Position numbers and translations under genes: made by a program. From positions 6,510,001 to 6,574,000 of the forward strand of contig NZ_CP106798.1 in NCBI RefSeq assembly GCF_025642155.1: 64,000 nt of DNA, read 5' to 3'. This document shows, one piece after another, positions 2,838 through 29,082 of the stretch. The stretch is from Streptomyces sp. HUAS 15-9. GTDB lineage: Bacteria > Actinomycetota > Actinomycetes > Streptomycetales > Streptomycetaceae. The stretch's first letter is position 1, and every line of letters begins with the position of its first letter. Under the pieces are notes generated by a model. It saw only the letters and a program-made list of their open reading frames with translations. It ran no database searches and was not told the origin of the DNA.

Positions 2838-5144
2838 GTGATCCAGGCCTTCGGACTGACCAGCAACCCCCGCAAGGCGAACCCGCCCGCCGTCGACGAC
2901 GTCTCGTTCGAGGCGTGCGCAGGCCGTGTCACCGCGCTCCTCGGGGCATCGGGCGCGGGCAAGACGACGGCACTCCGGTTGATGCTCGAACTCCAACAGG
3001 GCCGCGGGATCACCTGCTTCAGGGGCCGGCCTCTGCACCGCATCACCCACCCCTCACGCGAAGTCGGCGTCCTCCTCGGCGATGTGCCCGGGCATCCGGC
3101 CCGCTCGGTCCGGGGGCACCTGCGCATGCTGTGCGCCGCGGCGGGGGTCCCCGCCCGGCGCGCCGACGAGGTCCTCGAAGTGGTCGGCCTCGCAGGCCTG
3201 CGCGAGGAGCGCCTGGGCACACTGTCCCGGGGCATGGACCGCCGGCTCGGTCTGGCCTGCGTCCTGCTGTCCGATCCGCACACCCTCGTGCTGGACGACC
3301 CCGCGCGCGGGCTGTCGGCCCGCGAGGCCCGGTGGCTGCACGGCATGCTTCGGGCGCACGCGAGCCAGGGCGGCACGGTCCTGTTCGCCACGGCCGACCC
3401 CAAGGAAGCCGCGCGCACCGCCGACCAAGTCGTCACCCTGGAGGGCGGAAGGCTCGTCGCCGACCAGGAGGCGGCGGAGTTCGGCCGCACCCGCCTACGC
3501 CCCCGCGTGGCCGTCCGCAGCCCGCATGCCGCCCGCCTGGCCGCCGTACTCACCAAGGAGGCCCGCACTGCCCGGCGCTCCGTCGAGGTCGTGCACGAGG
3601 GCGGCAACCGCCTCTCCGTGTACGGCAGTACGACCGCCGACGTGGGCGAGGCCGCGTTCCGCCACGGCATCCTCGTCCATCAACTCGCGGACGAGACGGG
3701 TGACATGGGCCCCGGGGCCGGAGTGCCGACGGCTGACGGATCCCACCCGGCCGACGGATCGGCGGAGGCGAACAGTCCGGCAGCCGCCGACGAGCCGGCG
3801 ACCGCCGAACAGGCGAGGACTCCCGGCGGCGCGCCGGCCGTGGAGCAGACGGAGCAGGTTGGCGGCCCGGGGGCGGCGGATGGGCCCAAGGCGTTCGGCC
3901 GTGCGGTGACGACGGATCAGACGACGACGTCGGACGGTCCGGCTGCGGCACATGGGCCGAAGACGCCTGATGATCCCGCCGCCGCAGACCGACCGGAAAA
4001 GCCCGGCGACGCAGCCGCCACCGACCGGTCGCAGATCCTCGACGACCTCCCTGAACTGAGCCAACCGCAGACCCTCGACGAGCCCAACGTGCCGCATCAG
4101 TCGCGGTCCGACCCCGGTCCGCCCGCTCCGCCGGCCGCAGTACCCGCAGGGCCTCCCGCCGCCCCGGTCTCCGCCGCCGAGAGCGAGCAGCCCCAGGTTA
4201 GCGGCGTGCGCACCGCCGATGTGGAGGTAACCGACGACAGCGCCCCGTCCACCACTGCCGCGCATCGCCACCACGCGTCCGGAACCCGGCTCCGGACCGG
4301 TCACTCACGCCCCGCCGACTCCCTCGCTCCCGGTGATCCGTCCCCCCTCCCGCCCCCCATCTCCGTCCGCCCCGCCCCCAGCCCCCTCCGCCCCCTCCGC
4401 TACGAACTCCGCCGGGCCGCCGGCATCGGCACGGGCTTCGTTACCTGCGGTGCCGTGCTCGTGGTGTCCGCGCTCACCGCCGTACTGCTGGCCCGACTCG
4501 GCCACACCACGCAGGCTCGGCTGTTCGCGGCGTGGCCCGAGGAGCTGCCCCTGCCGCCCGCGGCGCTCGGTGCGGGGCTGCTCGGCGCGCTGGCCTTCGG
4601 TGACGAGTTCCGTCATCCCGCCCTGGCGGCCGACCGCGGCACCGTGCCCCGTCGGCTGGGCCTGCTCACCGCGAAACTCGTCGTCTCCGGTGCCACGGCG
4701 CTGATGCTGGCCTTCCTCACCGTGGGCTGCGACGCCGAGTCGCTCTATCTCGTATACGGCCGGGAGCTCACGCAGGTTCCCGCCGACTGGCTTTCGGCGA
4801 CCGCGAGTTGGTTCGGACTCGTGATCGGGTGTGCCTGGGCCGGAGTGCTGGCCGCGGGTGTCTTCCGGTCCACCGCGGCCGGGCTCGCCGCGGTGCTCGC
4901 CGTGCCCGTCGTGGTCGTGCCCCTGGTGCAGAAGGTGCTGCAGGGGCCCGCGGTGCGGATGGCGGCGGGGTTTCCCGGACGGATGCGGGAGGTGTTCCTG
5001 CTGCAGTGGCCGTTCGGGGGGGAGCGATATCTGACCGTGGCGGCCCGGGTGCTCGTCCAACCCGTGGGCGGCGCCCTCACGTTGTCGCTGACCGCCCTGC
5101 TCTGCGCGTATGTGCTGACGACCCTGCGGAGCAGGGTCCGATGA
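2838..5144 (+). CDS. ABC transporter ATP-binding domain fused to membrane domain
   Basis: 768 aa. Residues 1-215 form an ABC ATPase with Walker A (GASGAGKTTA), a divergent signature (LSRGMDRR instead of LSGGQ) and Walker B ending VLDDP, where the catalytic Glu is replaced by Asp. About residues 290-505 are a low-complexity Ala/Pro/Asp/Thr-rich linker. The C-terminal about 250 residues hold about six hydrophobic segments (for example FVTCGAVLVVSALTAVLLA). It is therefore a half-transporter with both functions on one chain; the substrate is unknown. GTG 2838 is preferred over TTG 2829: homologs begin MIQAFGLTS, and TATCTT (2825-2830) lies 7 nt upstream, suggesting a leaderless mRNA. Confidence 0.8.
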   Translation: MIQAFGLTSNPRKANPPAVDDVSFEACAGRVTALLGASGAGKTTALRLMLELQQGRGITCFRGRPLHRITHPSREVGVLLGDVPGHPARSVRGHLRMLCAAAGVPARRADEVLEVVGLAGLREERLGTLSRGMDRRLGLACVLLSDPHTLVLDDPARGLSAREARWLHGMLRAHASQGGTVLFATADPKEAARTADQVVTLEGGRLVADQEAAEFGRTRLRPRVAVRSPHAARLAAVLTKEARTARRSVEVVHEGGNRLSVYGSTTADVGEAAFRHGILVHQLADETGDMGPGAGVPTADGSHPADGSAEANSPAAADEPATAEQARTPGGAPAVEQTEQVGGPGAADGPKAFGRAVTTDQTTTSDGPAAAHGPKTPDDPAAADRPEKPGDAAATDRSQILDDLPELSQPQTLDEPNVPHQSRSDPGPPAPPAAVPAGPPAAPVSAAESEQPQVSGVRTADVEVTDDSAPSTTAAHRHHASGTRLRTGHSRPADSLAPGDPSPLPPPISVRPAPSPLRPLRYELRRAAGIGTGFVTCGAVLVVSALTAVLLARLGHTTQARLFAAWPEELPLPPAALGAGLLGALAFGDEFRHPALAADRGTVPRRLGLLTAKLVVSGATALMLAFLTVGCDAESLYLVYGRELTQVPADWLSATASWFGLVIGCAWAGVLAAGVFRSTAAGLAAVLAVPVVVVPLVQKVLQGPAVRMAAGFPGRMREVFLLQWPFGGERYLTVAARVLVQPVGGALTLSLTALLCAYVLTTLRSRVR

Positions 5145-5229
5145 CGACCTCCGTACGCTTCGGGTCCGCCCGTGCACACAACCTCCCGGAGAACGCCCAT
5201 TTCTTTCCGATAAGGCGTCAATTGCGACG

Positions 5230-5245
5230 GGGTGAGCGATCACCC
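5230..5245. promoter_or_regulatory. Perfect 6-bp inverted repeat upstream of the FadR-type gene
   Basis: GGGTGA-GCGA-TCACCC, followed by TTTC, lies 60 bp upstream of the GTG of the GntR/FadR gene. It could be an autoregulatory operator or a weak terminator of the ABC gene ending at 5144. The dyad is seen; the role is inferred. Confidence 0.4.
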
Positions 5246-5305
5246 TTTCGTGTGCTTTTCACCAAAGACCTCAAGGGAGTTGGAGACGGCGCCGACAAAG
5301 GATCC

Positions 5306-6193
5306 GTGAGTACCCTTGCGCACACCATGATGACCGCCGCCCGCCCCGCAGACTCCGGTCTGGTCGGCCCGGGCGAACTCGACCGCTACCCCTACGCGGA
5401 GGCCCCCGCCACCGACCGCGTCGGAGCGCCTGTCTGGGACGGTGCGGAACCCGAGCTGGGCCGGGTGGGCCGGCGTGCCGCGGGCAGCCGCGGACGCGGA
5501 CTGCACGGCCAACTCGTTCAGCAACTGGGCCAGATGATCGTCTCGGGCGACCTGGGCGCGGACCGCCCGCTCGTCCCGGAGGAGATCGGCCAGCGCTTCG
5601 AGGTCTCCCGCACCGTAGTCCGCGAGTCCCTCCGGGTCCTGGAGGCCAAGGGCCTGGTCAGCGCCCGCCCGAACGTCGGCACGCGCGTGCGTCCCGTCAG
5701 CGACTGGAACCTTCTCGACCCGGACATCATCGAGTGGCGGGCCTTCGGGCCGCAGCGCGACGACCAGCGGCGCGAGCTGAGCGAGCTGCGCTGGACGATC
5801 GAGCCGCTCGCCGCGCGCCTCGCCGCCGGGCACGGGCGCGAGGACGTCCAGCAGCGCCTCTCCGACATGGTCGAGATCATGAGCCACGCCATGGGACAGG
5901 GTGACGCACTCACCTTCTCCCGCGCCGACTCCGAGTTCCACACGCTGCTCATCCAGATCGCGGGCAACCGCATGCTGGAGCACCTCTCCGGCATCGTGTC
6001 GGCCGCCCTGCAGGTCTCCGGCGGCCCAGTCACCGGTTGCGATCGGCCGAACGAGGGGTCCCTGGCCCAGCACGCGCGGATCGTCGACGCCCTGGGCACC
6101 GGCGACGGCGCGGCGGCCGAGGCGGCCATGCGGCAACTGCTGACCGTTCATCCCGAGGTGGAGCGCGTGGTGCCCGCGCCACGCGAACACTGA
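5306..6193 (+). CDS. FadR/GntR-family transcriptional regulator
   Basis: 295 aa. A poorly conserved N-terminal extension (about 60 aa) precedes the GntR winged helix (about residues 66-130, containing VPEEIGQRFEVSRTVVRESLRVLEAKGLV split over two lines of homology). A C-terminal all-helical FCD effector domain (EPLAARLAAGHGRED to the end) completes the FadR subfamily layout. FCD proteins usually bind a carboxylate or sugar acid with a metal; the ligand here is not evident. The GTG start is preceded by AAAGGA at 5297-5302. It stands alone between the ABC gene and hrdB and is closed by a very strong terminator. Confidence 0.88.
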   Translation: MSTLAHTMMTAARPADSGLVGPGELDRYPYAEAPATDRVGAPVWDGAEPELGRVGRRAAGSRGRGLHGQLVQQLGQMIVSGDLGADRPLVPEEIGQRFEVSRTVVRESLRVLEAKGLVSARPNVGTRVRPVSDWNLLDPDIIEWRAFGPQRDDQRRELSELRWTIEPLAARLAAGHGREDVQQRLSDMVEIMSHAMGQGDALTFSRADSEFHTLLIQIAGNRMLEHLSGIVSAALQVSGGPVTGCDRPNEGSLAQHARIVDALGTGDGAAAEAAMRQLLTVHPEVERVVPAPREH

Positions 6194-6265
6194 GCCCGCC
6201 CCGCGGGCGGTGCGGTCGGTGAGTGCCGCGTTCTTGTGGCTGCGCCGGGCCCCGGAACCCGTCTG

Positions 6266-6311
6266 CCGCCGGACCCCGCCGGACCCTCAGAAGTCCGGCG
6301 GGGTCCGGCGG
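6266..6311 (+). terminator. Intrinsic-type terminator, 19-bp perfect stem
   Basis: The arms at 6266-6284 and 6293-6311 are perfect reverse complements (19 bp, all but a few pairs G-C) around an 8-nt loop. It follows the GntR gene and insulates hrdB from read-through. No U-tract follows, as is common in Streptomyces. Confidence 0.9.
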
Positions 6312-6620
6312 TGCGACGAGGTGGCATATGCGTCGGAGCGGCCCCGGTCAAGGGCATCGGTGACATCCTCTGCCCGTGTCTGACCGTTTTTGAGTGGTTA
6401 CGCGGTGTGACTCGGGCCACGCAGATTGGACGTAACGCTCACGGGATCAGCGCGATGACTTAAGAGGTGACAGCCGCGGAGGGAATATGGACGCCGTTCA
6501 TGGCGCTGTGAGTCTTCCCGGCCCCCGCCCGCGCCGTCGGCCCATCCCCAAGCCGGCGGTCGGCTCCAGTCCGTTTGGACGGGGCCGGAAGCCGTTTTCC
6601 AACGTTCCGAGAGGTTGTTC
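6312..6620 (+). promoter_or_regulatory. hrdB promoter region with a SigR-like promoter
   Basis: This non-coding stretch precedes hrdB. GGGAAT at 6481-6486, 18 nt, then GCT at 6505-6507 resembles the SigR (thiol-oxidative stress) consensus GGGAAT-N18-GTT with one change; hrdB of S. coelicolor is a known SigR target. TTGGAC at 6426-6431 may be the -35 of a housekeeping promoter, but no convincing -10 is seen at normal spacing. The leader ends with the ribosome-binding site GAGAGG at 6609-6614. Confidence 0.5.
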
Positions 6621-8162
6621 GTGTCGGCCAGCACATCCCGTACGCTCCCGCCGGAGATTGCCGAATCCGTCTCTGTCATGGCGCTCATCGAGCGGGGAAA
6701 GGCTGAGGGGCAGATCGCCGGCGATGACGTGCGTCGGGCCTTCGAAGCTGACCAGATTCCGGCCACTCAGTGGAAGAACGTACTGCGCAGCCTCAACCAG
6801 ATCCTCGAGGAAGAGGGTGTGACGCTGATGGTCAGTGCCGCGGAGCCCAAGCGCACCCGAAAGAGCGTCGCAGCGAAGAGTCCGGCCAAGCGCACCGCCA
6901 CCAAGACAGTCGCGGCGAAGACGGTGACCACCAGGAAGGCCACCGCCAGCACGGCTGCCCCGGTCGCGCCCGCCGAACCTGCCGCCGTCGACCCCGCCGA
7001 GGAAGCCGCACCCGCCAAGAAGGCCGCTGCCAAGAAGACGACCGCCAAGAAGGCTGTCGCGAAGAAGACCGTCGCCAAGAAGACGGCGGCCAAGAAGACC
7101 ACCGCCAAGAAGGACGACGGCGAGCTCATCGAGGAAGAGGTGCTCGAGGACGCCAAGGGCACCGAGGAGCCCGAGGGCACCGAGAGCGCGGGCTTCGTGC
7201 TGTCCGACGAGGACGAGGACGACGCGCCCGCGCAGCAGGTCGCCGCGGCCGGCGCCACCGCCGACCCGGTCAAGGACTACCTCAAGCAGATCGGCAAGGT
7301 CCCCCTGCTCAACGCCGAGCAGGAGGTCGAGCTCGCCAAGCGCATCGAGGCCGGTCTGTTCGCCGAGGACAAGCTGGCGAACGCCGACAAGCTCGCGCCG
7401 AAGCTCAAGCGCGAGCTGGAGATCATCGCGGAGGACGGCCGCCGCGCCAAGAACCACCTCCTGGAGGCCAACCTCCGTCTGGTGGTCTCTCTGGCCAAGC
7501 GCTACACCGGCCGCGGCATGCTATTCCTGGACCTCATCCAGGAGGGCAACCTCGGTCTGATCCGCGCGGTCGAGAAGTTCGACTACACCAAGGGCTACAA
7601 GTTCTCCACGTACGCCACCTGGTGGATCCGTCAGGCCATCACCCGCGCGATGGCCGACCAGGCCCGCACCATCCGTATCCCGGTGCACATGGTCGAGGTC
7701 ATCAACAAGCTCGCGCGCGTGCAGCGCCAGATGCTCCAGGACCTGGGTCGCGAGCCCACCCCGGAGGAGCTGGCCAAGGAGCTCGACATGACCCCGGAGA
7801 AGGTCATCGAGGTCCAGAAGTACGGCCGCGAGCCCATCTCGCTGCACACCCCGCTGGGCGAGGACGGCGACAGCGAGTTCGGTGACCTCATCGAGGACTC
7901 CGAGGCCGTCGTCCCGGCCGACGCGGTCAGCTTCACGCTCCTCCAGGAGCAGCTGCACTCCGTCCTCGACACCCTGTCCGAGCGCGAGGCGGGCGTCGTG
8001 TCCATGCGTTTCGGTCTCACCGACGGTCAGCCGAAGACCCTCGACGAGATCGGCAAGGTGTATGGCGTGACGCGTGAGCGGATCCGCCAGATCGAGTCCA
8101 AGACCATGTCGAAGCTGCGCCACCCGTCGCGTTCCCAGGTGCTGCGCGACTACCTCGACTAG
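6621..8162 (+). CDS. hrdB: Principal RNA polymerase sigma factor HrdB (sigma-70 group 1)
   Basis: 513 aa, near-identical in pattern to S. coelicolor HrdB. Region 1.1 is followed by a Lys/Ala/Thr-rich tract (about residues 75-170) made of AKK repeats and an acidic stretch, both typical of the actinobacterial protein. Region 1.2 ([16 protein letters not shown]), region 2 ([19 protein letters not shown] and the WWIRQAI -10 contact), region 3 and the region 4 helix-turn-helix ([14 protein letters not shown]) follow. It directs most housekeeping transcription. The start is GTG 6621 with GAGAGG six bases upstream; TTG 6615 is in frame but overlaps that site's spacing. A hairpin lies just downstream. 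Confidence 0.97.
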
Positions 8163-8180
8163 GTCACCCTCGTACGACCT

Positions 8181-8217
8181 CGACGGCCTGGTCTCCCCGT
8201 GGGGGGCCGGGCCGTCG
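8181..8217 (+). terminator. hrdB terminator hairpin
   Basis: CGACGGCC (8181-8188) pairs with GGCCGTCG (8210-8217), and an inner CCCC pairs with GGGG around a short loop. It begins 19 bp after the hrdB stop codon and lies before the protease gene. Confidence 0.65.
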
Positions 8218-8283
8218 CGCTGCGCGGTGCGGCGCTCTGGACGACTCTGGGTGTTCCGAGAGCACCCTGAGTGAGGAGCGAGC

Positions 8284-9147
8284 ATGCGTCGTACGTTTGC
8301 GCGGGCACTGGTCCAGCCGCTGGTCATGGCGGCTGCCGCGGCCGCAATACCGCTGGTGTCCGCGGCCCCGGTCGCCGCGGACAGCATTGTTGTAGGTGGC
8401 TTCCCTGTCGATGTGTCCCAGGTTCCCTGGACGGTCGCGCTGTCCAGCCGTGACCGGTTCGGGGGTATGCGTGCGGGACAGTTCTGCGGCGGCGTGGCGA
8501 TCGACCGCAGCACTGTGCTGAGCGCCGCCCACTGCCTGGGCGAGGACGTCCTGGGCGGCCCGCCGGACGAGGCGCGCGATCTCAGGGTCATCGCCGGCCG
8601 TACGGACCTCTTGTCGGGCCGGGGCGAGGAGATCGCCGTGCGCTCGGTCCGGATCAATCCGCACTACGACCCGGTCGGCAATTCCGGAGACTTCGCCGTG
8701 CTCACCCTTGCCAAGCCCCTGCCGCAGAGCTCGGTCATCGCCATGGCGGCCGCGGGTGACGCCGCCTACACGCCCGGAACGAGCGCCATGGTCACCGGAT
8801 GGGGCGATACGACGGGCACGGGCGACTACACGAGGCAACTACATGCCGCACGCGTGCGCGTGCTGCCCGACGAGCTGTGCAAGGAGGCCTATCCCGGCAG
8901 CGAGGAAGGCACGTACCAGGCCGGCTCCATGCTGTGCGCGGGGCAGACACAGGGCGGCCCCGACGCCTGCCAGGGTGACAGCGGGGGCCCGCTGGTCGCC
9001 AATGGGCGGCTGATCGGGCTCGTCTCCTGGGGGGACGGCTGTGGCCGCGCGGGGAGCCCGGGGGTCTACACCCGCGTGTCCGAGGTCGTGCGGACGCTGG
9101 GCCAGGTCGGCGGGAGCGGGTCGCCGAAGGCGCACCGGGGGGCCTGA
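8284..9147 (+). CDS. Secreted trypsin-like serine protease (S1 family)
   Basis: 287 aa. An Arg-rich N-terminus, a hydrophobic segment and an Ala-x-Ala-type site near residues 28-32 form a signal peptide, so the product is exported. The chymotrypsin-fold catalytic triad is visible: His83 (SAAHC), Asp136 (NSGDFAVL) and Ser233 (CQGDSGGPL). Asp227, six residues before the serine, corresponds to the S1-pocket Asp of trypsin and predicts cleavage after Arg/Lys. VVGG (around residue 37) resembles the activation site after a short propeptide. It is a single gene with its own 14-bp-stem terminator, and its position next to hrdB is conserved in Streptomyces. Confidence 0.92.
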   Translation: MRRTFARALVQPLVMAAAAAAIPLVSAAPVAADSIVVGGFPVDVSQVPWTVALSSRDRFGGMRAGQFCGGVAIDRSTVLSAAHCLGEDVLGGPPDEARDLRVIAGRTDLLSGRGEEIAVRSVRINPHYDPVGNSGDFAVLTLAKPLPQSSVIAMAAAGDAAYTPGTSAMVTGWGDTTGTGDYTRQLHAARVRVLPDELCKEAYPGSEEGTYQAGSMLCAGQTQGGPDACQGDSGGPLVANGRLIGLVSWGDGCGRAGSPGVYTRVSEVVRTLGQVGGSGSPKAHRGA

Positions 9148-9166
9148 GACGCCGTGGGGACGAGGA

Positions 9167-9199
9167 CGGGCGGTCGCTCCTTGGGGGAGCGACCGCCCG
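9167..9199. terminator. Bidirectional terminator between convergent genes
   Basis: A 14-bp perfect stem (9167-9180 with 9186-9199) around TTGGG lies between the protease gene (plus) and the DUF7455 gene (minus), so it can serve both. Confidence 0.85.
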
Positions 9200-9243
9200 A
9201 ACACCGGCCAGTGCCGGGGCTGGCTCGTCGTGGATGCGAGAGG

Positions 9244-9474
9244 TCAGCGCTCTTCTTCGGAGACGGATGCCGGAACGGACGTCAGCCGCTCCGTCTCGTC
9301 CTGTATCTCAGCGGCGATCTTCTTGAGTTCCGGCTCGAACTTGCGGCCGTGGTGGGCGCAAAAGAGCAGTTCACCGCCGCTGAGCAGGACTACGCGCAGG
9401 TAGGCCTGGGCGCCACAGCGGTCGCAGCGATCGGCGGCCGTCAGGGGGCTCGCGGGGGTCAGAACAGTAGTCAC
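9244..9474 (-). CDS. DUF7455 small zinc-binding-type protein
   Basis: 76 aa. A CxxC pair (DRCDRCGAQAY) and a CAHH motif about 20 residues later look like a single zinc site; the C-terminal half is a charged helix. This matches the actinobacterial DUF7455 family, whose role is not established. GTG start with AGAGG upstream. A 13-bp palindrome (9489-9501) and TTGACC further upstream on this strand may belong to its promoter. It is convergent with the protease gene and divergent from parE. Confidence 0.8.
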   Translation of the reverse strand: MTTVLTPASPLTAADRCDRCGAQAYLRVVLLSGGELLFCAHHGRKFEPELKKIAAEIQDETERLTSVPASVSEEER

Positions 9475-9914
9475 GTCGCCTCTTCTCTAGCTCGACGAGC
9501 TGTCGTACCAGGGTCAACATCCAACCAGCCCGAAAACGTTCCCGCTCGTGGCTTTTCCTCGAAAAAATCTTTCCGGGGCGGCTGTCTGCTGCCGGTTGGC
9601 GGCGAATGTGCCGTATTGCGTGTCTTGTGTGCTTACGGGTTCGCGCTGTCTATCGGTTTGGGTCCCCCGGCTGGGTTGCCGGTTGTTCATGAGGACGTGC
9701 CCGGAGCCTAAATGGTTCATGCCTCGAAGGGAACGTGATATGTACTTCACTCCATCGAGGGATCGAACATGCATGCGACTCTGGACTAGTCTGAGTTCAG
9801 AGTGAGGGTGGCGTTACAACGGCTCTACCAGGCCTCGGTACCCTCTGAGCGGCGACCGAAGCCGGGCCCTTACCCAGAAGGGGCCCAACTGAAATTCAGC
9901 GAGGAGCGAACCGC
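9475..9914. other. Divergent intergenic region between DUF7455 gene and parE
   Basis: 440 bp without a supported gene, with lower GC than its surroundings around 9540-9790. It contains the perfect dyad AGCTCGACGAGCT at 9489-9501 close to the minus-strand start. Promoters for both flanking genes must lie here, but no hexamer pair is convincing. The short reading frames in this stretch have no recognisable similarity. Confidence 0.5.
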
Positions 9915-12397: not shown

Positions 12398-12922
12398 ATG
12401 TCCGGGCTCGTCAACGCGTTGGTGATCGCGGCCGTTGTCGCGCTGGTGGTCGTACGGCAGTTCCGTGCCCGTCCGATCGACACCGACCGGCGATGGTGGG
12501 TCGTGCCCGTGATCCTCGCGGTCCTCGCGCTGCGCGGGCCCGGCATACTCGGCGCCCAGCACCGCACCGGATCCGCTCTGCTGCTCGCCGCCGAGGTGCT
12601 CATAGGCCTGGCCACCGGCGTCGGCTGGGCCTGGACCACCCGTGTGTGGGAGGAGCCGGACGGCGTCGTCTGGACCAAGAGCACCAAGGCGAGCGTGCTC
12701 GTCTGGGCCGTGGGCATCGGTGCGCGCGTCGGACTCTTCGCGCTCGGCGCCGTGATCGGCGTGCGCCAGGACACCTCCGCGCTCATGGTCGCACTCGCGG
12801 GCACCCTGCTGGTCCGCTCCGGGATCCTGGCCTGGCGTGCGCAGTCGCTGAGGACACCCGTCGCACAGGCCGCGGCGTACGGTGACGGCGTGGCCGGGCC
12901 GGCGTGGAAGGAGAGTGTATGA
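12398..12922 (+). CDS. DUF1453 family membrane protein
   Basis: 174 aa with about four to five hydrophobic segments (ALVIAAVVALVVV, WWVVPVILAVLAL, LLLAAEVLIGLATGVGWAW, ASVLVWAVGIGARVGLFALGAVIG, ALMVALAGTLLV), matching DUF1453/CcdC-like membrane proteins of unknown function. ATG 12398 follows ACGGAGG; an upstream in-frame start lacks this. Its stop overlaps the kinase ATG (ATGA), so it is translationally coupled to the two-component pair and may be an accessory membrane partner of the sensor. Confidence 0.8.
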   Translation: MSGLVNALVIAAVVALVVVRQFRARPIDTDRRWWVVPVILAVLALRGPGILGAQHRTGSALLLAAEVLIGLATGVGWAWTTRVWEEPDGVVWTKSTKASVLVWAVGIGARVGLFALGAVIGVRQDTSALMVALAGTLLVRSGILAWRAQSLRTPVAQAAAYGDGVAGPAWKESV

Positions 12923-14070
12923 CGGAGAACGCCTGGACGCGCTGGCCGTCCCGCGAGGCGCTCGGTCGCACGGGTATCTCCCGGCCCCGGAGGATGCTCG
13001 CCTGGGCCGTGCGGCTCCTGGTGCTCGCCATACTCCTCTGGGAAGCCTTCGACGCTCGTCACGTCCATGTCCTGGGCGCGGTCGCCGCCACCGTGGCCGT
13101 CATAGTGGCCGCAGTCGTCTCCTGGGCCTTCTTCCGCACGACGTACGCGCACCGGCTCCTGCCCTCCCTGGCCCTCATCGGAGTGCTGCTGGGCATCGCG
13201 GTAGCGGCGCAGGCCACGGGCTTCAAGGCGCCCGCCCTGGTGATCTGGTGCGGGTGCGGCATCTCCGCCCTGGAGCGACTGCCACTCGCCGCCGCTCTGC
13301 CGGTGACCTCCGTCGCCCTCGCCTCGTACTCGGCCTTCAACAACGACGTCTGGCTGACCACCGCCGCCACCGTCGCGGGCATGGCCCTCGCCGGCTATGT
13401 CCTGCGCCTCGACGCCGAAGCGCGTGGCAACGCCCAGCGTCTGCTCGCGCAGGAGCGTGCCGCCCGGGTGGCCGAGGCGGAGTCGGCGGCGCTGGCGGAG
13501 CGGGCCAGGATCGCGCGGGAGATCCATGACGTGCTCGCGCACAGCCTTTCGGCGCAGCTCGTGCACCTGGAGGCGGCCCGCCTGCTGATCGAGCGGGGCG
13601 CCGACCGGGAGCAGATCCTGGAACGGGTGGTGGCGGCGCGGGGGATGGCCCGGGACGGTCTCGCCGAGACCCGGCAGGCACTCTCCGCGCTGCGCGGTGA
13701 CCTGACCCCGCTGGAGGACTTCCTCGGCGAGCTCGTCAGCGCGGCCGACGGCGCCGAGGTCACCGTCACGGGTGAGCGCAGACCGTTGCCCGCGGAGGCG
13801 TCCCAGGCCGTGCGCAGGGTCGCCCAGGAGGCGCTGACGAACGTGCGCAAGCATGCCCACGGCGCCAAGGTCCGGGTGTGGCTGGACTACAGCGACCGTG
13901 AAGTGACCCTGGACGTGCGGGACTCGGGCGGTGCGGCGGGCGAACTCACCGGGTCGGGCGCCGGGTACGGTCTGCTGGGCATGCGGGAGCGTGCCGAGCT
14001 GCTGGGCGGGTCGCTGGAGGCCGGGCCGGACGAGGAGGGGTTCGCGGTGACATTGAAGGTGCCCGTATGA
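12919..14070 (+). CDS. NarL-type sensor histidine kinase (HisKA_3)
   Basis: 383 aa. The N-terminal half carries about four to five transmembrane helices (LVLAILLWEA to VAGMALAGYVL), suggesting membrane-borne sensing without a large extracellular domain. The HisKA_3 dimerisation/phosphoacceptor motif REIHDVLAHS contains His203. The HATPase part has QEALTNVRKHA (N box) and GYGLLGMRERA (G box). It pairs with the response regulator that overlaps its 3' end by ATGA. Start ATG 12919 overlaps the DUF1453 stop and is preceded by GGAAGGAGAG. The signal is unknown. Confidence 0.9.
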   Translation: MTENAWTRWPSREALGRTGISRPRRMLAWAVRLLVLAILLWEAFDARHVHVLGAVAATVAVIVAAVVSWAFFRTTYAHRLLPSLALIGVLLGIAVAAQATGFKAPALVIWCGCGISALERLPLAAALPVTSVALASYSAFNNDVWLTTAATVAGMALAGYVLRLDAEARGNAQRLLAQERAARVAEAESAALAERARIAREIHDVLAHSLSAQLVHLEAARLLIERGADREQILERVVAARGMARDGLAETRQALSALRGDLTPLEDFLGELVSAADGAEVTVTGERRPLPAEASQAVRRVAQEALTNVRKHAHGAKVRVWLDYSDREVTLDVRDSGGAAGELTGSGAGYGLLGMRERAELLGGSLEAGPDEEGFAVTLKVPV

Positions 14071-14747
14071 CGGAGGAGGCAGGCAGGAGGCCCGCGCGGG
14101 TGGTCGTGGCGGACGACCAGACCGTGGTCCGGGAGGGCATCGTGATGCTGCTCGGGCTGCTGCCGGGCGTCGAGGTCGTCGGGGCCGCGTGCGACGGTGA
14201 GGAGGCGGTGAAGCTGGTGGCCGAACTCGCCCCGGACGTCGTCCTGATGGACCTGCGGATGCCCCGCTGCGACGGTGTCGAGGCAACCCGGCGGATCCGG
14301 GCGGAGCACCCCGGGACCCAGGTCGTGGTGCTCACCACGTACGCAGACGACGAGTCGCTGTTCCCCGCGCTCAGAGCGGGGGCTCGCGGTTACCTGACCA
14401 AGGACGCGGGCGGCGACGAGATCGTGCGGGCCGTGGAGAGCGTGCTCTCGGGTGACGCCGGGCTGTCGCCGAGTGTCCAACGGCGCCTGCTGGAGCGGCT
14501 GTCGGAGCCCGAGCCGAGACCGGAGCGCGCCGAGGCGCCCGACGGACTGACGGCGCGGGAGACCGAGGTGCTGGTGCTGATCGCCGAGGGTCTCACCAAC
14601 CAGGAGATCGCCCGCAGGCTGCACGTCTCCACGGCGACCGTGAAGACCCACATCAACAACCTCTTCGCCAAGACCGGGCTCAAGGACCGTGCCCAGGCGG
14701 TGCGTTACGCGTACGGAAAGGGACTGGTGCGTCCACCGGCCGGTTGA
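14067..14747 (+). CDS. NarL/FixJ-family response regulator
   Basis: 226 aa. The receiver domain (about residues 8-130) has acidic pocket residues ADD and phosphoacceptor Asp62 (VVLMDLRMP), Thr in LTTY and Lys in LTKDAGG. The LuxR-type helix-turn-helix lies at residues 155-220 (LTARETEVLVLIAEG, NQEIARRLHVS). It is the partner of the preceding kinase and probably acts on the half-site cluster upstream of its own operon. The next genes (DUF485 and symporter) start only 68 bp later and may be among its targets. Confidence 0.92.
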   Translation: MTEEAGRRPARVVVADDQTVVREGIVMLLGLLPGVEVVGAACDGEEAVKLVAELAPDVVLMDLRMPRCDGVEATRRIRAEHPGTQVVVLTTYADDESLFPALRAGARGYLTKDAGGDEIVRAVESVLSGDAGLSPSVQRRLLERLSEPEPRPERAEAPDGLTARETEVLVLIAEGLTNQEIARRLHVSTATVKTHINNLFAKTGLKDRAQAVRYAYGKGLVRPPAG

Positions 14748-14815
14748 GTCACCTGATGGGGTGAGAGCCGGGGGAAGAAGAGTCAGGGATCTTCCCGATC
14801 TGTCCATCCTTGGGC

Positions 14816-15364
14816 ATGCAGTCAAGCAACGGCCGTCCCCGTGAAGGCGGAGGCGGCCCCGAGAGTTCGGCCGGGAATCACGAAGACCATGGCCCGGCTT
14901 CCCGCAACGTGGGATATGAAGACCCCTGGTACGACGCACTGGCCTCCGGCTGGGGCGAGCTGGACGGTACGGGCGTGCCCACTCCGGTGGTGCCGGCCGC
15001 GCGCGAAGGGCAGGAGCGGGTGGCCTTTCGGGCGCGCGACGTGTACCTGGAGGTGCAGCGCAGCGCGGCCTTCCAGGAAGTGCGCAGTCGGTACCGCAGG
15101 TTCGTGGTGCCCGGGGTCGCGGTCTTCTTCTCCTGGTACGTGGGGTACGTGGTCACGGCGACGACGGCGCCCGGGTTCATGGCCAGGCCCGTGGTGGGCG
15201 CGGTGAACGTGGCGATACTCGCGGGACTCGGGCAGTTCGTCACCACCTTCCTCCTCACCTGGGCCTACACCCGGCATGCGCGGTTGCACAGGGACCGGGC
15301 GGCGCTTGATCTGCGCTGGGACACACAGGAGTTGACGCGTGGTGTGCGCGGTGGTGCTTCATGA
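14816..15364 (+). CDS. DUF485 family membrane protein (symporter partner)
   Basis: 182 aa. An unconserved hydrophilic N-terminus of about 85 residues is followed by the DUF485 core (SAAFQEVRSRYRRFVVPGVA) with two membrane helices (GVAVFFSWYVGYVVTATTA, AILAGLGQFVTTFLLTWAYT). DUF485 proteins (YjcH type) are encoded next to acetate/pyruvate-type sodium:solute symporters, as here, where the stop overlaps the symporter ATG. The exact start is uncertain; ATG 14816 has no clear Shine-Dalgarno. Confidence 0.82.
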   Translation: MQSSNGRPREGGGGPESSAGNHEDHGPASRNVGYEDPWYDALASGWGELDGTGVPTPVVPAAREGQERVAFRARDVYLEVQRSAAFQEVRSRYRRFVVPGVAVFFSWYVGYVVTATTAPGFMARPVVGAVNVAILAGLGQFVTTFLLTWAYTRHARLHRDRAALDLRWDTQELTRGVRGGAS

Positions 15365-16953
15365 CGAGCCATCACCAGACGCTGGCACTGCTGCTGTTCA
15401 GCGGATTTGTGGCGATCACGCTGGCGATCACCACGTGGGTGAGCCGTAACCGGCGGGGTTCCGCCGAAGAGTTCTATGCCGGCGGGCGGCTCTTCTCCCC
15501 TATGGAGAATGGTTTTGCCATTGCAGGCGATTACATGTCGGCCGCCTCGTTCCTCGGAGTCACCGGTCTCATCGCCCTGTTCGGCTACGACGGACTGCTG
15601 TACGTGGTGGGCTTCCTGGTGGCCTGGTTGGTGGTGTTGTTCCTGGTCGCCGAACTGGTGCGCAACTGCGGACGGTTCACGCTGGCCGACGTGGTGGCCG
15701 CGCGGATGAACGAGCGTCCGGTGCGGATCGCGGTGGGAACGTCCTCGGTCACCGTGTCCGTTCTCTATTTGGTGGCGCAAATGGTGGGGGCGGGCAGCCT
15801 GGTCGCGCTGCTGCTCGGGCGCAGCGGCGAGGCGGCGCAGGCGTGGACCGTCATCGGGGTCGGTGCGCTCATGGTGATCTATGTGTCGTTGGGAGGGATG
15901 CGGGCCACGACGTGGATTCAGATCGTGAAGGCTGTTCTGCTGCTCGGCGGGACGATCGCGCTGACCGTGCTGGTCCTGCTGCGGTTCCACGGTGACGTCG
16001 ACCGACTGCTGCTCACGGCCGCCGAGCGCAGCGGTCACGGGGACGCGTTCCTGGCGCCCGGCCTCAAGTACGGCGGGGACTGGACGGCACGATTCGACTT
16101 CGTCAGCCTGGGCCTCGCACTGGTGCTGGGCACGGCCGGACTGCCGCACATCCTGTCCCGGTTCTACACCGTGCCGACCGCGCGGGCCGCGCGCCGTTCG
16201 GTGGTGTGGGCGATCGGGCTGATCGGCGGGTTCTACCTGATGACCATCGTGCTCGGCTTCGGGGCGGCCGCGATCGTCGGGCCGAAGGCTGTGAGCGGCT
16301 CGAACGCGGCCGGGAACACGGCGGTTCCGCTGCTGGCGCTCAACCTGGGCGGCGGCGCCGACTCCACGGGCGGAACGGTGCTTTTCGCGGTCGTGGCGGC
16401 CGTCGCCTTCGCCACGATCCTCGCCGTGGTCGCCGGGATCACCCTCGCCTCCTCCGCGTCGGTGGCCCACGACCTGTATGCCTCCCTGCGGCGCGGGGGT
16501 GGCCGGCCGCGCAGCGAGGTGGCGGTGGCCCGGGTCGCGGCGGTCGGTATCGGTGTGGTCGCGATCGGGCTGGGCCTGCTGGCCCGAGACCTCAACGTGG
16601 CCTTCCTGGTGGGCCTGGCCTTCGCCGTGGCCGCGTCGGCGAATCTGCCGGTGCTGCTCTACTCGCTGTTCTGGCGTGCCTTCACCACACGCGGCGCGGC
16701 ATGGGCCGTCTACGGAGGGCTTGTTCCGGCCCTGGGGCTCGTCCTGCTGTCCCCGGTGGTGTCCGGCAGCCCGGATTCGCTGTTCCCGGCCGTCGACTTC
16801 CAGTACTTCCCGTTGCAGAACCCCGGCATCGTCTCCATCCCGCTGGGCTTCCTCGCGGGCTGGCTGGGGACGGTCACCTCGGCCGAGGTCCCGGACGAGG
16901 CCAAGCACGCGGAGACCGAGGTGCGGTCGCTGACCGGAGCGGGGGCCGTGTAG
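15361..16953 (+). CDS. actP: Cation:acetate-type symporter (SSS family)
   Basis: 530 aa, about 13 transmembrane helices, sodium:solute symporter family. The N-terminal TWVSRNRRGSAEEFYAGGR followed by the GDYMSAASFLG segment is characteristic of the ActP/MctC branch that imports acetate or other short monocarboxylates; the specificity here is inferred. It overlaps the DUF485 gene by ATGA. The convergent neighbour is the broken two-component system, whose intact homologs resemble citrate/dicarboxylate sensors and could once have controlled uptake. Confidence 0.85.
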   Translation: MTSHHQTLALLLFSGFVAITLAITTWVSRNRRGSAEEFYAGGRLFSPMENGFAIAGDYMSAASFLGVTGLIALFGYDGLLYVVGFLVAWLVVLFLVAELVRNCGRFTLADVVAARMNERPVRIAVGTSSVTVSVLYLVAQMVGAGSLVALLLGRSGEAAQAWTVIGVGALMVIYVSLGGMRATTWIQIVKAVLLLGGTIALTVLVLLRFHGDVDRLLLTAAERSGHGDAFLAPGLKYGGDWTARFDFVSLGLALVLGTAGLPHILSRFYTVPTARAARRSVVWAIGLIGGFYLMTIVLGFGAAAIVGPKAVSGSNAAGNTAVPLLALNLGGGADSTGGTVLFAVVAAVAFATILAVVAGITLASSASVAHDLYASLRRGGGRPRSEVAVARVAAVGIGVVAIGLGLLARDLNVAFLVGLAFAVAASANLPVLLYSLFWRAFTTRGAAWAVYGGLVPALGLVLLSPVVSGSPDSLFPAVDFQYFPLQNPGIVSIPLGFLAGWLGTVTSAEVPDEAKHAETEVRSLTGAGAV

Positions 16954-17017
16954 TGCGGCCCGCGTGCCAGGGCGGTGATCCGCCGCGGAGACATCCGTGC
17001 GCCCGGGCGACGACACG

Positions 17018-17636
17018 TCACGGTGCCACCCATGCGTACCGGTGCTCGGGGCGTCCCGCGTCGCCGTACTTCAGGGACAGGCGGAGCCGGCCCGCCTGTT
17101 CCAGGTGGCGGAGGTAGCGCTGGGCGGTGGAGCGGCTCAGGCCGGTCTCGGCGGCGACCTCGTGGGCGGACAGCGGGTGGCCGGCGCGGTGCAGGACGCC
17201 GCAGATGAGGTCCGTGGTGGGCTCGGACTGACCGCTGGGCAGGCCGGGCGCGCTCGGCGCGGGCGTGGTCCGCAGCGCGCCGAAGATGCGGTCGACCTGC
17301 TCCTGCCCGGTCAGGCCCCGGCCGCCGACCAGGTCGACGGTGCGGCGCAGGGCGGCGTAGGAGTCCAGGCGGGTGCGCAGGGCGGCGAAGGTGAACGGCT
17401 TGACCAGATAGCGCAGGGCTCCCAGCCGCATCGCCTTCTGCACTGTCGTCACATCGCTGGCCGCCGTGATCATGATGACGTCGGGGCCATGGCCCTGTTC
17501 CCGCATCAGGTGGACGAGTTCGAGGCCGGTCCGGTCCGGCAGACAGTGGTCGAGCAGCACCAGGTCGATGCCACCGCGTTCCACGCTGGCCAGGGCCTGA
17601 GTGGCGCTGTGCGCGGGCGGCCACCCGGAAGCCGGG
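17018..17636 (-). pseudogene. Response regulator (CitB/DcuR type), N-terminus lost and frameshifted
   Basis: A readable part from 17584 down gives 188 aa: most of a receiver domain (IDLVLLDHCLPD with phosphoacceptor Asp, VKPFTF with Lys) and a C-terminal winged helix (LSAHEVAAETGLSRSTAQRYL). Just upstream the family sequence continues (VPGFRVAARA, then HSATQALASVERGG), but these two pieces lie in different frames. The shift is at the CG repeat 17610-17616, where two bases appear to be missing. The first about 25 residues of the receiver, with the acidic pocket, are absent because the sequence runs straight into the sensor-kinase PAS domain at about 17636-17642. Confidence 0.85.
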
Positions 17637-18526
17637 AACCCGCTGGCCTCGGACCGTGAGCAGGTCGGTGCCGGTCACCCGGCCGGTCAGGACGTCCGTC
17701 GTACGGCCCTCGCCCAGCGCGTCGTCCGGCGTCCGGTCGACGGCCTCGTCACCTATGCCCAGCGGCCGCCGCGCCTCGTCGTTGAGCAGACGTATGCGGC
17801 CGGTGCGGTCTATGGCGACGACACCTTCTCGGATACCGCGCAGCATCGCCTCGCGCTCCGCGAGCAGCGCCGAGATGTCCGAGAAGGCCAGGTCCCGGGT
17901 CTGCCGTTGGACCCGGCGGGAGATCAGCCAGGCGGCCAGCGCGCCGACCGCGAGCGCGCCGCCCGCATAGGCGAGCAGCCCGGGGTCGAGCTGATCAGCC
18001 GGGCCCGCACGCTGTCGTACGCGATGCCCACCGAGACCGCCCCGACGATCCGGTGGTCGGCGTCGTACAGGGGCACATTGCCGCGGGCGGAGCGGCCCAG
18101 GGTGCCGGTGTCGATCTCCATGACCTGCTTGCCGGCCAGGGCATCCTCCGGGTCGGTCGAGACCTTCAGACCGATCTGCCGCGGGTTCGTGTGCGACCAG
18201 CGGTTGCCCCGCAGGTCCATGACCGCGATGTACTCGGCGTGGGTGATGTGCCGGATGCGTTCCGCCTCCCGCTGCACCGGGCCGTCGGCGGTCGGCGGAG
18301 AGTTCTGGAGGTCCGTCGCGACCTGCGGATTCTGCGCGGTGGTCTGCGCGATCGCCAGCGCACGACGCATGGCCTCGTTGTCGAGCTGCTTGCTCAGCGG
18401 CGCCAGGAACAGCCCGGTCGCGAGCACGGCGACTCCCGCGGCGATCGCCACCTGCATCAGCAGCACCTGGGAGAACACCCGCCGCGGCAGACCGGCGCAG
18501 ACGGCTGCGGGGGGAGTGGGGCTCAT
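17637..18526 (-). pseudogene. Citrate/dicarboxylate-type sensor kinase remnant, lacking the kinase domain
   Basis: Starting at ATG 18526, the first part encodes a membrane helix (VFSQVLLMQVAIAAGVAVLA) and a CitA/DcuS-like periplasmic domain (including HTNPRQIG). A one-base loss in the C/G run at about 17979-17985 moves the frame. The second membrane segment (LLAYAGGALAVGALAAWLIS) and the PAS domain (MLRGIREGVVAIDRTGRI to LTVRGQRV) are read in the next frame. The sequence then jumps into the response regulator, so the histidine and ATPase domains (about 240 residues in relatives) are gone. About 300 of the usual 540 or so residues remain. Confidence 0.85.
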
Positions 18527-18627
18527 ACCCACGACGGTGCGTGGACGGGCGCGCCCTGCCGTAGGGGGTGTGGCGTGGATCTCTTGACCGGATCGTGGGA
18601 GATCCGGGTGGGCCTCGCCCCGGGCCG

Positions 18628-19569
18628 TCAGCTCGCCAGGGCCGTCGTGGTCAGCTCGTGCACCGCCACCACGTCCATCCGGGCCGGGGTACCGAGCACC
18701 GACGCCCCGCAGCTCTCCGGCCGGGGCGGCAGCGAGGCGCCCTGGGCCACGGTGACGCGCCACCGGCGCCCGTCGGCATGGGCCACGGTCACCTCCCAGC
18801 GCTGCGCCCCGCCTTCTGTCCGTACGACGCTCAGCGTGCCCGCCGTGTACTCGTCGGCGGCCGTGCGCACGGCCAGTTCGGCCGCCTGGCCGGGACGTTC
18901 CCAGGCCGAGCACCCGCGGCAGCCCTCGACGACGACACGGCCCTCCCGCGCGCCGTGCATGACCTCTTTGACGGCGTGCGCCTCGGCCCTGCCGTAGGCG
19001 TAGCCGTACGGCAGCACGAGCACGGTCGGCGAGAAACGATGACCACCCAGATGGGTGACCTCCCAGGTGCCGCGCACACCGGACGCGGCGAGCTCGGCCG
19101 CGAGCGGGCGGCCCAGAAGGGCGCAGCAGCGGTCGCGCTTGCCGTTGGTGCAGACGAGCGCCAGCGGGCCGTCCGGGTACGCCTGGGCGCGCAGTGCCAC
19201 GTCGAACGAACGGTGGTCACCCGCGCCGAGGGCGGTGAAGTCGAGGGCGCGCAGCTGTTCCGGGTCGCAGGTCGTGGCGCTGCGCAGCCAGGTGTTCCCG
19301 GGAACGGTGTGGGCGGCGTAGACCTGCCGCATGGCGGTCCTGCCGAGGTCGGCGTGGCGTCCGGGACGCCGGATCAGCGCGATCCGTACGCCGGTTCCCT
19401 CGGTGGCTGCCTCCAGCGCGCGTCCCAGTGCGGGGTCCAGGTGGCTCGAAGCGAGCGCTTTGGCACCCCAGGGACCGGGCTGTTCCAGCAGCAGCCATGT
19501 CGTCGCAGTGGCCGCGGTGCCGGAAACGGGCTCTTCGAGGCTCCTGGAGACGGTCGCACACCTACTCAC
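18628..19569 (-). CDS. Sucraseferredoxin-like (thioredoxin-fold 2Fe-2S) protein
   Basis: 313 aa. The N-terminal part (TWLLLEQPGPWG) and a central thioredoxin-like ferredoxin domain with CTNGKRDRCC, HLGGHRFSPT and a later CRGC match the sucrase/ferredoxin-like (Apd1-related) family. These proteins carry an unusual Cys/His-ligated 2Fe-2S cluster and are linked to iron-related redox chemistry. GTG 19569 directly follows a near-consensus iron box (19570-19588). A TAGGCT -10 inside the box lies 7 nt before the GTG, so transcription is probably leaderless and shut off by iron-loaded DmdR1/IdeR. Its citrate synthase neighbour is separated by 54 bp. Confidence 0.88.
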   Translation of the reverse strand: MSRCATVSRSLEEPVSGTAATATTWLLLEQPGPWGAKALASSHLDPALGRALEAATEGTGVRIALIRRPGRHADLGRTAMRQVYAAHTVPGNTWLRSATTCDPEQLRALDFTALGAGDHRSFDVALRAQAYPDGPLALVCTNGKRDRCCALLGRPLAAELAASGVRGTWEVTHLGGHRFSPTVLVLPYGYAYGRAEAHAVKEVMHGAREGRVVVEGCRGCSAWERPGQAAELAVRTAADEYTAGTLSVVRTEGGAQRWEVTVAHADGRRWRVTVAQGASLPPRPESCGASVLGTPARMDVVAVHELTTTALAS

Positions 19570-27666: not shown

Positions 27667-29082
27667 ATGCCCATGGGTCACACGACCAAGGCCGAGGCAG
27701 GCTCCGGGGGCCTGACAGCGACCGAGCACCGCCTGGCCAACGGTCTGCGCGTGGTGCTCTCCGAGGACCACCTGACCCCGGTCGCGGCGGTGTGCCTCTG
27801 GTACGACGTCGGCTCCCGCCACGAAGTCAAGGGCCGTACGGGCCTGGCTCACCTTTTCGAGCATCTGATGTTCCAGGGCTCCGCGCAGGTCAAGGGCAAC
27901 GGCCACTTCGAACTCGTGCAGGGCGCCGGCGGCTCGCTCAACGGCACCACCAGCTTCGAGCGCACCAACTACTTCGAGACCATGCCCGCCCACCAGCTGG
28001 AGCTCGCCCTCTGGCTGGAGGCCGACCGCATGGGCTCGCTGCTGGCCGCCCTCGACGACGAGTCCATGGAAAACCAGCGGGACGTCGTCAAGAACGAGCG
28101 CCGGCAGCGCTACGACAACGTGCCGTACGGCACCGCCTTCGAGAAGCTGACCGCCCTCGCCTACCCGGAGGGCCACCCGTACCACCACACGCCGATCGGT
28201 TCGATGGCCGACCTGGACGCGGCCACGCTGGAGGACGCGCGCCGGTTCTTCCGGACGTACTACGCGCCGAACAACGCGGTGCTCTCCGTGGTCGGCGACA
28301 TCGACCCGCAGCAGACCCTGGCCTGGATCGAGAAGTACTTCGGCTCGATCCCCTCGCACGACGGCAAGCCCGAGCCCCGCGACGGCTCGCTGCCGGAGGT
28401 CATCGGCGAGCAGCTGCGCGAGGTCGTCGTGGAGGAGGTCCCGGCCCGCGCGCTGATGGCCGCCTACCGGCTCCCGCAGGACGGCACGCGCGCGTCGGAC
28501 GCCGCCGACCTGGCGCTCACCGTCCTGGGCGGCGGCGAGTCCTCCCGCCTGTACAACCGGCTCGTGCGCCGCGACCGTACGGCCGTGGCGGCCGGGTTCG
28601 GTCTGCTGCGGCTGGCCGGGGCGCCCTCGCTGGGCTGGCTGGACGTGAAGACCTCCGGTGACGTCGAGGTGCCGGTCATCGAGACCGCCATCGACGAGGA
28701 GCTCGCCCGCTTCGCTCAGGAGGGTCCCACCCCCGAGGAAATGGAGCGCGCCCAGGCCCAGTTGGAGCGCGAGTGGCTGGACCGGCTCGGCACGGTCGCG
28801 GGCCGCGCCGACGAGTTGTGCAGGTTCGCGGTCCTGTTCGGCGACCCGCAGCTCGCCCTGACCGCCGTCCAGCGCGTCCTGGAGGTGACGCCGCAGGAGG
28901 TCCAGGAGGTGGCCAAGGCCCGCCTGCGCCCGGACAACCGCGCGGTGCTCGTCTACGAGCCGCTCTCCGCCGAGTCCGCGGAGCACACCCAGGACGAGGA
29001 CTTCCCCGAGGACCCGGAGTCGGAAGCCACCGTGGAAGCGTCCACCGCCGACCAGAACGAGGACGAGGAGGCGGCCAAGTGA
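27667..29082 (+). CDS. M16-family zinc metallopeptidase (catalytic subunit)
   Basis: 471 aa, pitrilysin/insulinase family. The inverted zinc motif HxxEH is at residues 62-66 (HLFEH), and the downstream acidic ligand is in ENQRDVVKNERRQR. Two M16 half-domains are present (TALAYPEGHPYHHTPIG in the first, FGLLRLAGAPSLGW in the second). The tail is very acidic. It overlaps the second M16 gene by GTGA, so the two are coexpressed and likely form a heterodimeric clamshell like mitochondrial processing peptidase or bacterial paired M16 enzymes. ATG 27667; ATG 27673 is an alternative. Confidence 0.9.
   Translation: MPMGHTTKAEAGSGGLTATEHRLANGLRVVLSEDHLTPVAAVCLWYDVGSRHEVKGRTGLAHLFEHLMFQGSAQVKGNGHFELVQGAGGSLNGTTSFERTNYFETMPAHQLELALWLEADRMGSLLAALDDESMENQRDVVKNERRQRYDNVPYGTAFEKLTALAYPEGHPYHHTPIGSMADLDAATLEDARRFFRTYYAPNNAVLSVVGDIDPQQTLAWIEKYFGSIPSHDGKPEPRDGSLPEVIGEQLREVVVEEVPARALMAAYRLPQDGTRASDAADLALTVLGGGESSRLYNRLVRRDRTAVAAGFGLLRLAGAPSLGWLDVKTSGDVEVPVIETAIDEELARFAQEGPTPEEMERAQAQLEREWLDRLGTVAGRADELCRFAVLFGDPQLALTAVQRVLEVTPQEVQEVAKARLRPDNRAVLVYEPLSAESAEHTQDEDFPEDPESEATVEASTADQNEDEEAAK

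What the first reader, a model, noticed from the sequence alone, without database searches (positions are those of the whole stretch)
17018..18526. A citrate-type two-component system is being lost next to the acetate symporter
Read on the minus strand, the sensor kinase loses frame at about 17980, its PAS domain runs directly into the receiver domain at about 17640 (LTVRGQRV then PGFRVAARA), and the receiver is frameshifted at about 17612. Relatives of the two genes should need roughly 0.8 kb more. The histidine/ATPase domains and the acidic pocket of the regulator are missing, so the system cannot signal. Three independent lesions point to decay, with the neighbouring symporter left intact.
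Basis: partly seen in the sequence, partly recalled or inferred. Interest (0 to 1): 0.7.

Follow-up and report, generated by a model that had tools for sequence, protein, structure and literature searches.

The report
Deletion-broken citrate-type sensor-regulator locus
In this Streptomyces-type genome a deletion of roughly 4.5 kb, with two nearby frameshifts, destroyed a citrate-family sensor and its regulators and removed a neighbouring transporter, while the acetate-type symporter next door stayed intact; this is ordinary gene loss, larger than first thought.

Summary
In detail: on the minus strand the kinase loses frame at ~17972-17987, its PAS region runs into a CitB-type regulator at 17638-17640, and that regulator loses frame at ~17612. 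"Decay" holds; the reconstruction does not. In relatives the order is kinase, regulator A, three-gene ABC transporter, regulator B, symporter. The window joins the kinase (residue ~298) to regulator B (~24). In seven full-cassette relatives the missing stretch is 4491-4589 bases, not 0.8 kb, so regulator A and the ABC transporter went too; none of the lost genes has an ortholog elsewhere in this genome, only paralogs. G000 is sister to nine genomes with the full cassette. An assembly error is unlikely: the other window genes compared are in frame, and the kinase remnant has excess private substitutions at otherwise invariant sites (9 versus 3 in two flanking genes; 14 versus 94 in 42 relatives; p = 1.2e-5). 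Other relaxation tests are weaker, and no reads were available. Among the rows printed for 392 genomes only G000 spans the junction. Ordinary lineage-specific pseudogenisation.

The parts
17972..18526 (-). Kinase remnant 1: first transmembrane stretch (by eye) and sCache_3_2 sensor domain, ATG at 18526, frame lost at about 17972-17987
   Evidence: translation; Pfam sCache_3_2 E 6.1e-25; 80% to the relative G033 kinase residues 1-185/186
17637..17987 (-). Kinase remnant 2: second transmembrane stretch and PAS region (residues ~183-298), in another frame
   Evidence: translation; 88-89% to the G033 kinase; PAS in the intact G033 kinase at residues 225-269
17638..17640 (-). Deletion junction: kinase residue ~298 joined to regulator B residue ~24; match ends of the two halves overlap by 2-4 bases (3 in eight of ten relatives)
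   Evidence: the two ends in relative G033 are not alike (at most 24 of 60 bases; longest shared word 6, out of register)
17612..17637 (-). Short piece of regulator B that reads on in the kinase frame, then a frame change
   Evidence: translation; (81 bases against 83 in printed relatives)
17018..17614 (-). Regulator B remnant, residues 33-230: receiver without its first strand and acidic pocket but with the phospho-acceptor Asp and conserved Lys, plus C-terminal winged-helix domain; open reading frame from GTG 17584 to 17018 is 188 aa
   Evidence: Pfam Response_reg profile positions 40-110 and HTH_IclR; alignment; 92% to G033 regulator B against 59-62% to regulator A
15361..16953 (+). Neighbouring sodium/solute symporter, MctC type, intact, convergent with the regulator remnant
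   Evidence: SSF and MctC above cut-off; 90-91% to G033 and G116 in one frame; no private substitution in 311 otherwise invariant columns
14810..15364 (+). Small membrane protein upstream of and overlapping the symporter (DUF485-like: name recalled, not tested)
   Evidence: counterparts beside the symporter in G033 and G116
18628..19569 (-). Intact flanking gene (313 aa, called UP) used as control and as the synteny anchor on the kinase side

Best explanation
This is a pseudogene locus left by a real chromosomal deletion. The ancestor carried a DcuS/CitA-family sensor kinase, two CitB-type regulators (A beside the kinase, B beside the symporter) and, between them on the other strand, a three-gene ABC transporter with an SsuA/NMT1-like binding protein. 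A deletion of about 4.5 kb, with at most a few bases of microhomology, joined the kinase PAS region to the start of regulator B. It removed the His region and ATPase domain, all of regulator A, the ABC transporter and regulator B's acidic pocket. Two small frameshifts, before, with or after the deletion, finished both remnants. The locus should be unable to pass phosphate; the MctC-type symporter is kept and, if expressed, is expressed without it. Shown: the anatomy, the loss of the genes from the genome, the phylogenetic placement, and relaxed constraint on the kinase remnant by one of several tests. Inferred: that the system regulated the symporter and the ABC genes, that kinase and both regulators were partners, and that the event was illegitimate end joining.
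For: Frames and junction. Gap in seven full-cassette relatives 4491-4589 bases. Gene order in relatives; domains. Phylogeny: G000 is sister to nine genomes (support 100 for the nine and for the nine plus G000), all with the full cassette; the next two, G077 and G147 (support 92 for the twelve), also have it. Lost parts are not elsewhere in the genome: kinase 299-559 finds only paralogs (best full-length 40%), binding protein 26%, regulator A 45% outside this locus, permease at most 31%, ATPase at most 46%. Decay: 9 private changes at otherwise invariant kinase columns against 3 in two flanking genes; 14 against 94 in 42 relatives, Fisher p = 1.2e-5. Local sequence quality: the other genes compared with G033 and G116 show no internal frame change once gene-edge artefacts are set aside.
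Against: No reads could be mapped. Other relaxation tests are weaker: the kinase amino-acid to third-position ratio of the G000 branch ranks only 8 of 43, and the intact flanking gene UP ranks 8 of 43 as well; the kinase branch relative to UP and symporter ranks 4 of 43; regulator B ranks 6 of 26 and 10 of 26. Regulator B has 3 private changes, but another genome has 5. In the wider set (up to 51 genomes) G000 has 4 and 4 private changes in the two kinase parts, and one other genome has 6 in the first part. The ancestral 4.5 kb rests on parsimony; three relatives lack the ABC genes (gap 1659-1949 bases), so a two-step loss is not excluded. The transcriptional link to the symporter is untested.
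Confidence: 0.88

Rival explanations
1. Assembly or sequencing error: the locus is intact in the strain and the deletion and frameshifts are artefacts.
For: Three lesions cluster within about 380 bases; no reads available. Two of three are small frame changes of the kind base-calling errors give.
Against: 9.6 Mb in 3 contigs, 100% complete; the other window genes compared are in frame; the two ends are not alike in relative G033, so no repeat to collapse (one search shows the 20 largest of 39 repeat families, none at the ends); excess private amino-acid changes in the kinase remnant, none in the symporter; the missing genes are absent elsewhere in the assembly.
Confidence: 0.06
2. Stepwise loss: the ABC transporter was lost first, as in G091, G079 and G087, and a later 1.7-1.9 kb deletion fused the kinase to regulator B.
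For: Three relatives keep kinase, regulator A and regulator B without the ABC genes.
Against: None of the nine genomes of the sister clade, nor G077 and G147 next to them, lacks the ABC genes.
Confidence: 0.12
3. The remnant is still used: the 188-aa regulator fragment (GTG 17584) acts as a phosphorylation-independent DNA-binding protein.
For: The winged-helix domain and most of the receiver read open and 92% identical to G033 regulator B; regulator B shows no clear excess of private substitutions.
Against: The receiver lacks its first strand and acidic pocket; a private Y56C change lies two residues after the phospho-acceptor; its original start is gone, and with it presumably its promoter (inference); long open frames arise easily in such G+C-rich DNA.
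Confidence: 0.07

Closest known systems
CitA-CitB of Corynebacterium glutamicum and Klebsiella (review PMC3353115, passages seen)
   Same: extracytoplasmic sensor between two transmembrane stretches, CitB-family regulator, encoded beside a transporter
   Different: there one regulator and citrate transporters (citH, tctCBA); here the intact relatives have two regulators, an SsuA/NMT1-like ABC transporter and an MctC-type symporter, and the window's copy is broken
DcuS-DcuR / MalK (NCBIfam NF008298, NF007750)
   Same: best-scoring kinase and regulator models for the intact relative; its sensor domain matches DcuS and CitA structures
   Different: below the curated cut-offs (363 of 520 bits; 137-149 of 262 bits), so not members by that test
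Intact second CitA-type pair in the same genome, G000:C1:6037.1-6039.5 kb
   Same: same two-gene design, kinase 40% identical over residues 13-532
   Different: intact, beside a DctA-like carrier (name recalled from the sequence); regulator only 45% identical to G033 regulator A

Membership tests
CitA/DcuS-type sensor kinase | sCache_3_2 sensor domain between two transmembrane stretches | tested here: met
   domain: window fragment E 6.1e-25; transmembrane stretches by eye only, the second is out of frame with the first
CitA/DcuS-type sensor kinase | SPOB_a His region and HATPase_c domain | tested here: not met
   present in relative G033, absent from the window locus, no ortholog elsewhere in the genome
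CitB/DcuR-type regulator | complete receiver with acidic pocket and phospho-acceptor Asp | tested here: not met
   Asp and Lys kept, first strand with the DDD pocket missing
CitB/DcuR-type regulator | C-terminal winged-helix DNA-binding domain | tested here: met
   HTH_IclR 33.2 bits against cut-off 22; whole-protein DcuR model 95 bits, below its cut-off of 262
MctC monocarboxylate symporter (neighbour) | score above the NCBIfam NF058657 cut-off | tested here: met
   739.8 against 670 bits
Pseudogene locus | relaxed constraint on the kinase remnant | tested here: met
   p = 1.2e-5 (genomes not independent); branch ratios weaker and not unusual
Pseudogene locus | relaxed constraint on the regulator B remnant | tested here: inconclusive
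   3 private changes, others up to 5; branch ratio rank 6 of 26
Citrate sensing | binding of citrate by the sensor domain | not testable with these tools
   sequence matches both DcuS and CitA sensor structures; ligand not decided

The most novel reading that the evidence does not exclude
In intact relatives one DcuS/CitA-type kinase serves two regulators, A and B, that bracket an ABC transporter, and regulator B with the transporter is a dispensable branch lost repeatedly in the genus; the window is the extreme case, in which the whole signalling branch is lost but the symporter is retained, so that symporter expression has been rewired.
Probability: 0.35. Interest if true: 0.4.

Novelty: new member of a known kind. 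Interest (0 to 1): 0.2.

Why it matters
It is a clean natural knock-out of a conserved transporter-linked signalling locus: useful as a comparison strain for asking what the kinase, its two regulators and the ABC transporter do, and a warning that a pair-wise reading of a broken locus underestimates what was lost. By itself it is ordinary gene loss.

Tried and rejected
Simple kinase-regulator pair missing 0.8 kb: rejected; none of the ten relatives measured, all with regulator B, has such a spacing (seven at 4491-4589 bases, three at 1659-1949), and in the 20 relatives with only regulator A at the locus the remnant's own gene, regulator B, was not found there. Collapse at a repeat: rejected for G033, whose two ends share at most 24 of 60 bases; one search printed 20 of 39 repeat families, none at the ends (nearest a 23-base, 78% pair about 120-135 bases to one side of both). 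This is the relative's sequence, not the window strain's own lost DNA. Low-quality sequence: rejected for the genes compared. In one search the flags other than the kinase were three genes against G033 and two against G116; one search looked at three of these places and the stops lie upstream of the true start or past the end; the remaining one (G033 gene 15) is a weak 48% piece upstream of a 93% match whose open frame starts at 27667. The regulator B remnant itself was not flagged, because its match simply starts at residue 33, so the flag count misses such truncations; one G116 gene (851 aa) matches with an internal unmatched stretch in one frame. Relocation of the missing genes: rejected. 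Literature: five searches showed no title or abstract about this locus; limited to the open library, these terms and the rows listed. PMC7411085 (passages) concerns an AfsQ1/Q2-type system. PMC3353115: passages only. All others: listings only.

Limits of counts: the 50 relatives (47, three) were picked for strong matches, with three picked for a short gap (G091, G079, G087) and three as more distant forms (G004, G006, G012), so they are not a random sample. Of 51 loci, 43 entered the tree and because UP, symporter and both kinase parts were needed (four lacked UP, four a sufficient single symporter match). The regulator-B test used 26 genomes; G009's relic was left out. Match lists were cut by the tool.

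Full report
What is in the window. The window is G000:C1:6510001-6574000 of a 9.6-Mb genome in 3 contigs. On the minus strand the first kinase frame starts at 18526 and holds an sCache_3_2 domain. It breaks at about 17972-17987; the second transmembrane stretch and PAS region continue in another frame to 17637. At 17638-17640 the sequence passes into a CitB-type regulator, which changes frame at about 17612 and then reads to its stop at 17018.

What relatives look like. A DNA search with window 16900-18700 in 150 genomes of the genus (G000 included) showed the strong matches breaking at query 739-741, with the two halves far apart. In G033 the order is flanking gene, kinase, regulator A (226 aa), then on the other strand binding protein, permease and ATPase of an ABC transporter, then regulator B (230 aa), then the symporter on the other strand. 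Domains: sCache_3_2, PAS (just below its cut-off), SPOB_a and HATPase_c; Response_reg with a winged helix in both regulators; NMT1, BPD_transp_1 and ABC_tran. The remnant in the window is regulator B: 92% to G033 regulator B, against 59-62% to regulator A. From the coordinates, the bases between the two matched ends number 4531, 4509, 4516, 4589, 4566, 4491 and 4508 in seven relatives with the ABC genes, and 1810, 1659 and 1949 in three without.

Architecture in 50 relatives (picked, not random). The full order was seen in 21; one more (G101) has everything except the symporter, which was not found in the 2.4 kb left of the stretch. Kinase, regulators A and B and symporter without ABC: 3 (G091, G079, G087). 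Kinase, regulator A and symporter: 20, and one more with a partial symporter match (G132). Single oddities: G009 keeps only a C-terminal piece of regulator B; G003 shows no regulator A at the locus and its symporter match is split between two frames; G127 lacks the permease and most of the ATPase; G368 shows kinase and regulator A only. So the region varies and has eroded in several lineages; whether the 20 short forms are losses or the original state I did not resolve.

Placement and ancestral state. A tree of flanking gene plus symporter DNA for 43 genomes makes G000 sister to nine genomes (G403, G033, G179, G016, G020, G110, G145, G116, G084), with support 100 for the nine and 100 for the nine plus G000; G077 and G147 join next (support 92). 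All eleven have the full order. Parsimony gives a full-cassette ancestor and a loss of about 4.5 kb. A search of the junction (17560-17720) in 392 genomes returned 330 with a match; among the rows printed only G000 spans the junction (two rows start at base 73, some six bases past it; weaker rows were not printed). A degenerate pattern for the junction found nothing in the named genome collection, from which the window's own genome may be left out.

Where the lost genes are. Searches of the own genome with the G033 proteins found only paralogs: kinase 40% (full length), binding protein 26%, regulator A 45% (apart from the remnant itself, 61%), permease at most 31%, ATPase at most 46%. Orthologs between these species are mostly above 75%.

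Is it real? Against G033, 30 genes had good matches in the window (between about 1.9 and 51.6 kb) and 26 were in one frame without stops; against G116, 32 and 29. The flagged ones are the kinase itself and gene-edge artefacts (see Tried and rejected); the regulator B remnant counts among the unflagged. The kinase remnant has 9 substitutions private to G000 at columns otherwise invariant, against 3 in two flanking genes together; the other 42 genomes have 14 against 94 (Fisher p = 1.2e-5). The symporter has none in 311 such columns. An assembly error would not produce this. Weaker or neutral results: average pairwise dN/dS with ten near relatives for the first kinase part 0.388 against 0.273 among those relatives, second part 0.138 against 0.119, regulator B 0.135 against 0.083, symporter 0.112 against 0.128, UP 0.202 against 0.198. 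Terminal-branch ratios: kinase rank 8 of 43, but UP also 8 of 43, symporter 27 of 43, regulator B 6 of 26; kinase relative to UP and symporter rank 4 of 43, regulator B 10 of 26. In one search's wider set G000 has 4 and 4 private changes in the kinase parts, and one other genome has 6 in the first part. Genomes are not independent, so the p-value is a guide.

Mechanism. The matched ends overlap by 2-4 bases, and the two ends in G033 are not alike, so an end-joining type of deletion is the likely route (inference; Streptomyces end joining is recalled). By chance the kinase frame runs on through the junction for about eight residues before the regulator frameshift. Without His region, ATPase and acidic pocket no phosphotransfer is expected. 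What the intact system senses is not decided: the sensor matches DcuS and CitA structures, and the kinase model DcuS/MalK is below its cut-off. The two regulators of G033 have similar first helices, which fits one kinase serving both, as do relatives with regulator A alone and G003 with regulator B alone at the locus; this remains inference. The same genome has an intact second pair of the family beside another carrier, which could hide part of the phenotype.

Verdict. Observation confirmed, decay supported, extent and anatomy corrected. Ordinary pseudogenisation with a useful lesson: the loss covers two regulators, a kinase core and a complete ABC transporter.

Noticed in passing
L037:3965-8337 and loci: Intact relatives carry one DcuS/CitA-type kinase with two paralogous CitB-type regulators bracketing an SsuA/NMT1-like ABC transporter; the second regulator and transporter were not found at the locus in 20 of the 50 relatives looked at (21 with G132, 22 with G368).
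   Followed up: partly
L087 (G003), 4173-9534: Regulator A is missing between kinase and ABC genes, and the symporter match is split between two frames: an independent decay or a draft-assembly error.
   Followed up: partly
L073 (G009), 5553-5768: Only a C-terminal piece of regulator B (69% identity, residues 150-230) remains beside the symporter.
   Followed up: partly
L099 (G127), 6146-7079: ABC permease not found and ATPase reduced to weak pieces, while binding protein, kinase and both regulators match in full.
   Followed up: partly
L108 (G000:C1:6034000-6043500), 3100-6992: A second, intact CitA-type kinase and regulator, divergent from a DctA-like carrier (carrier name recalled).
   Followed up: partly
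window 12904-14747: A separate kinase and NarL-type regulator pair (type recalled) lies just upstream of the small membrane protein and the symporter, in the same direction, and is in frame against G033 and G116; it could be the symporter's remaining regulator.
   Followed up: no
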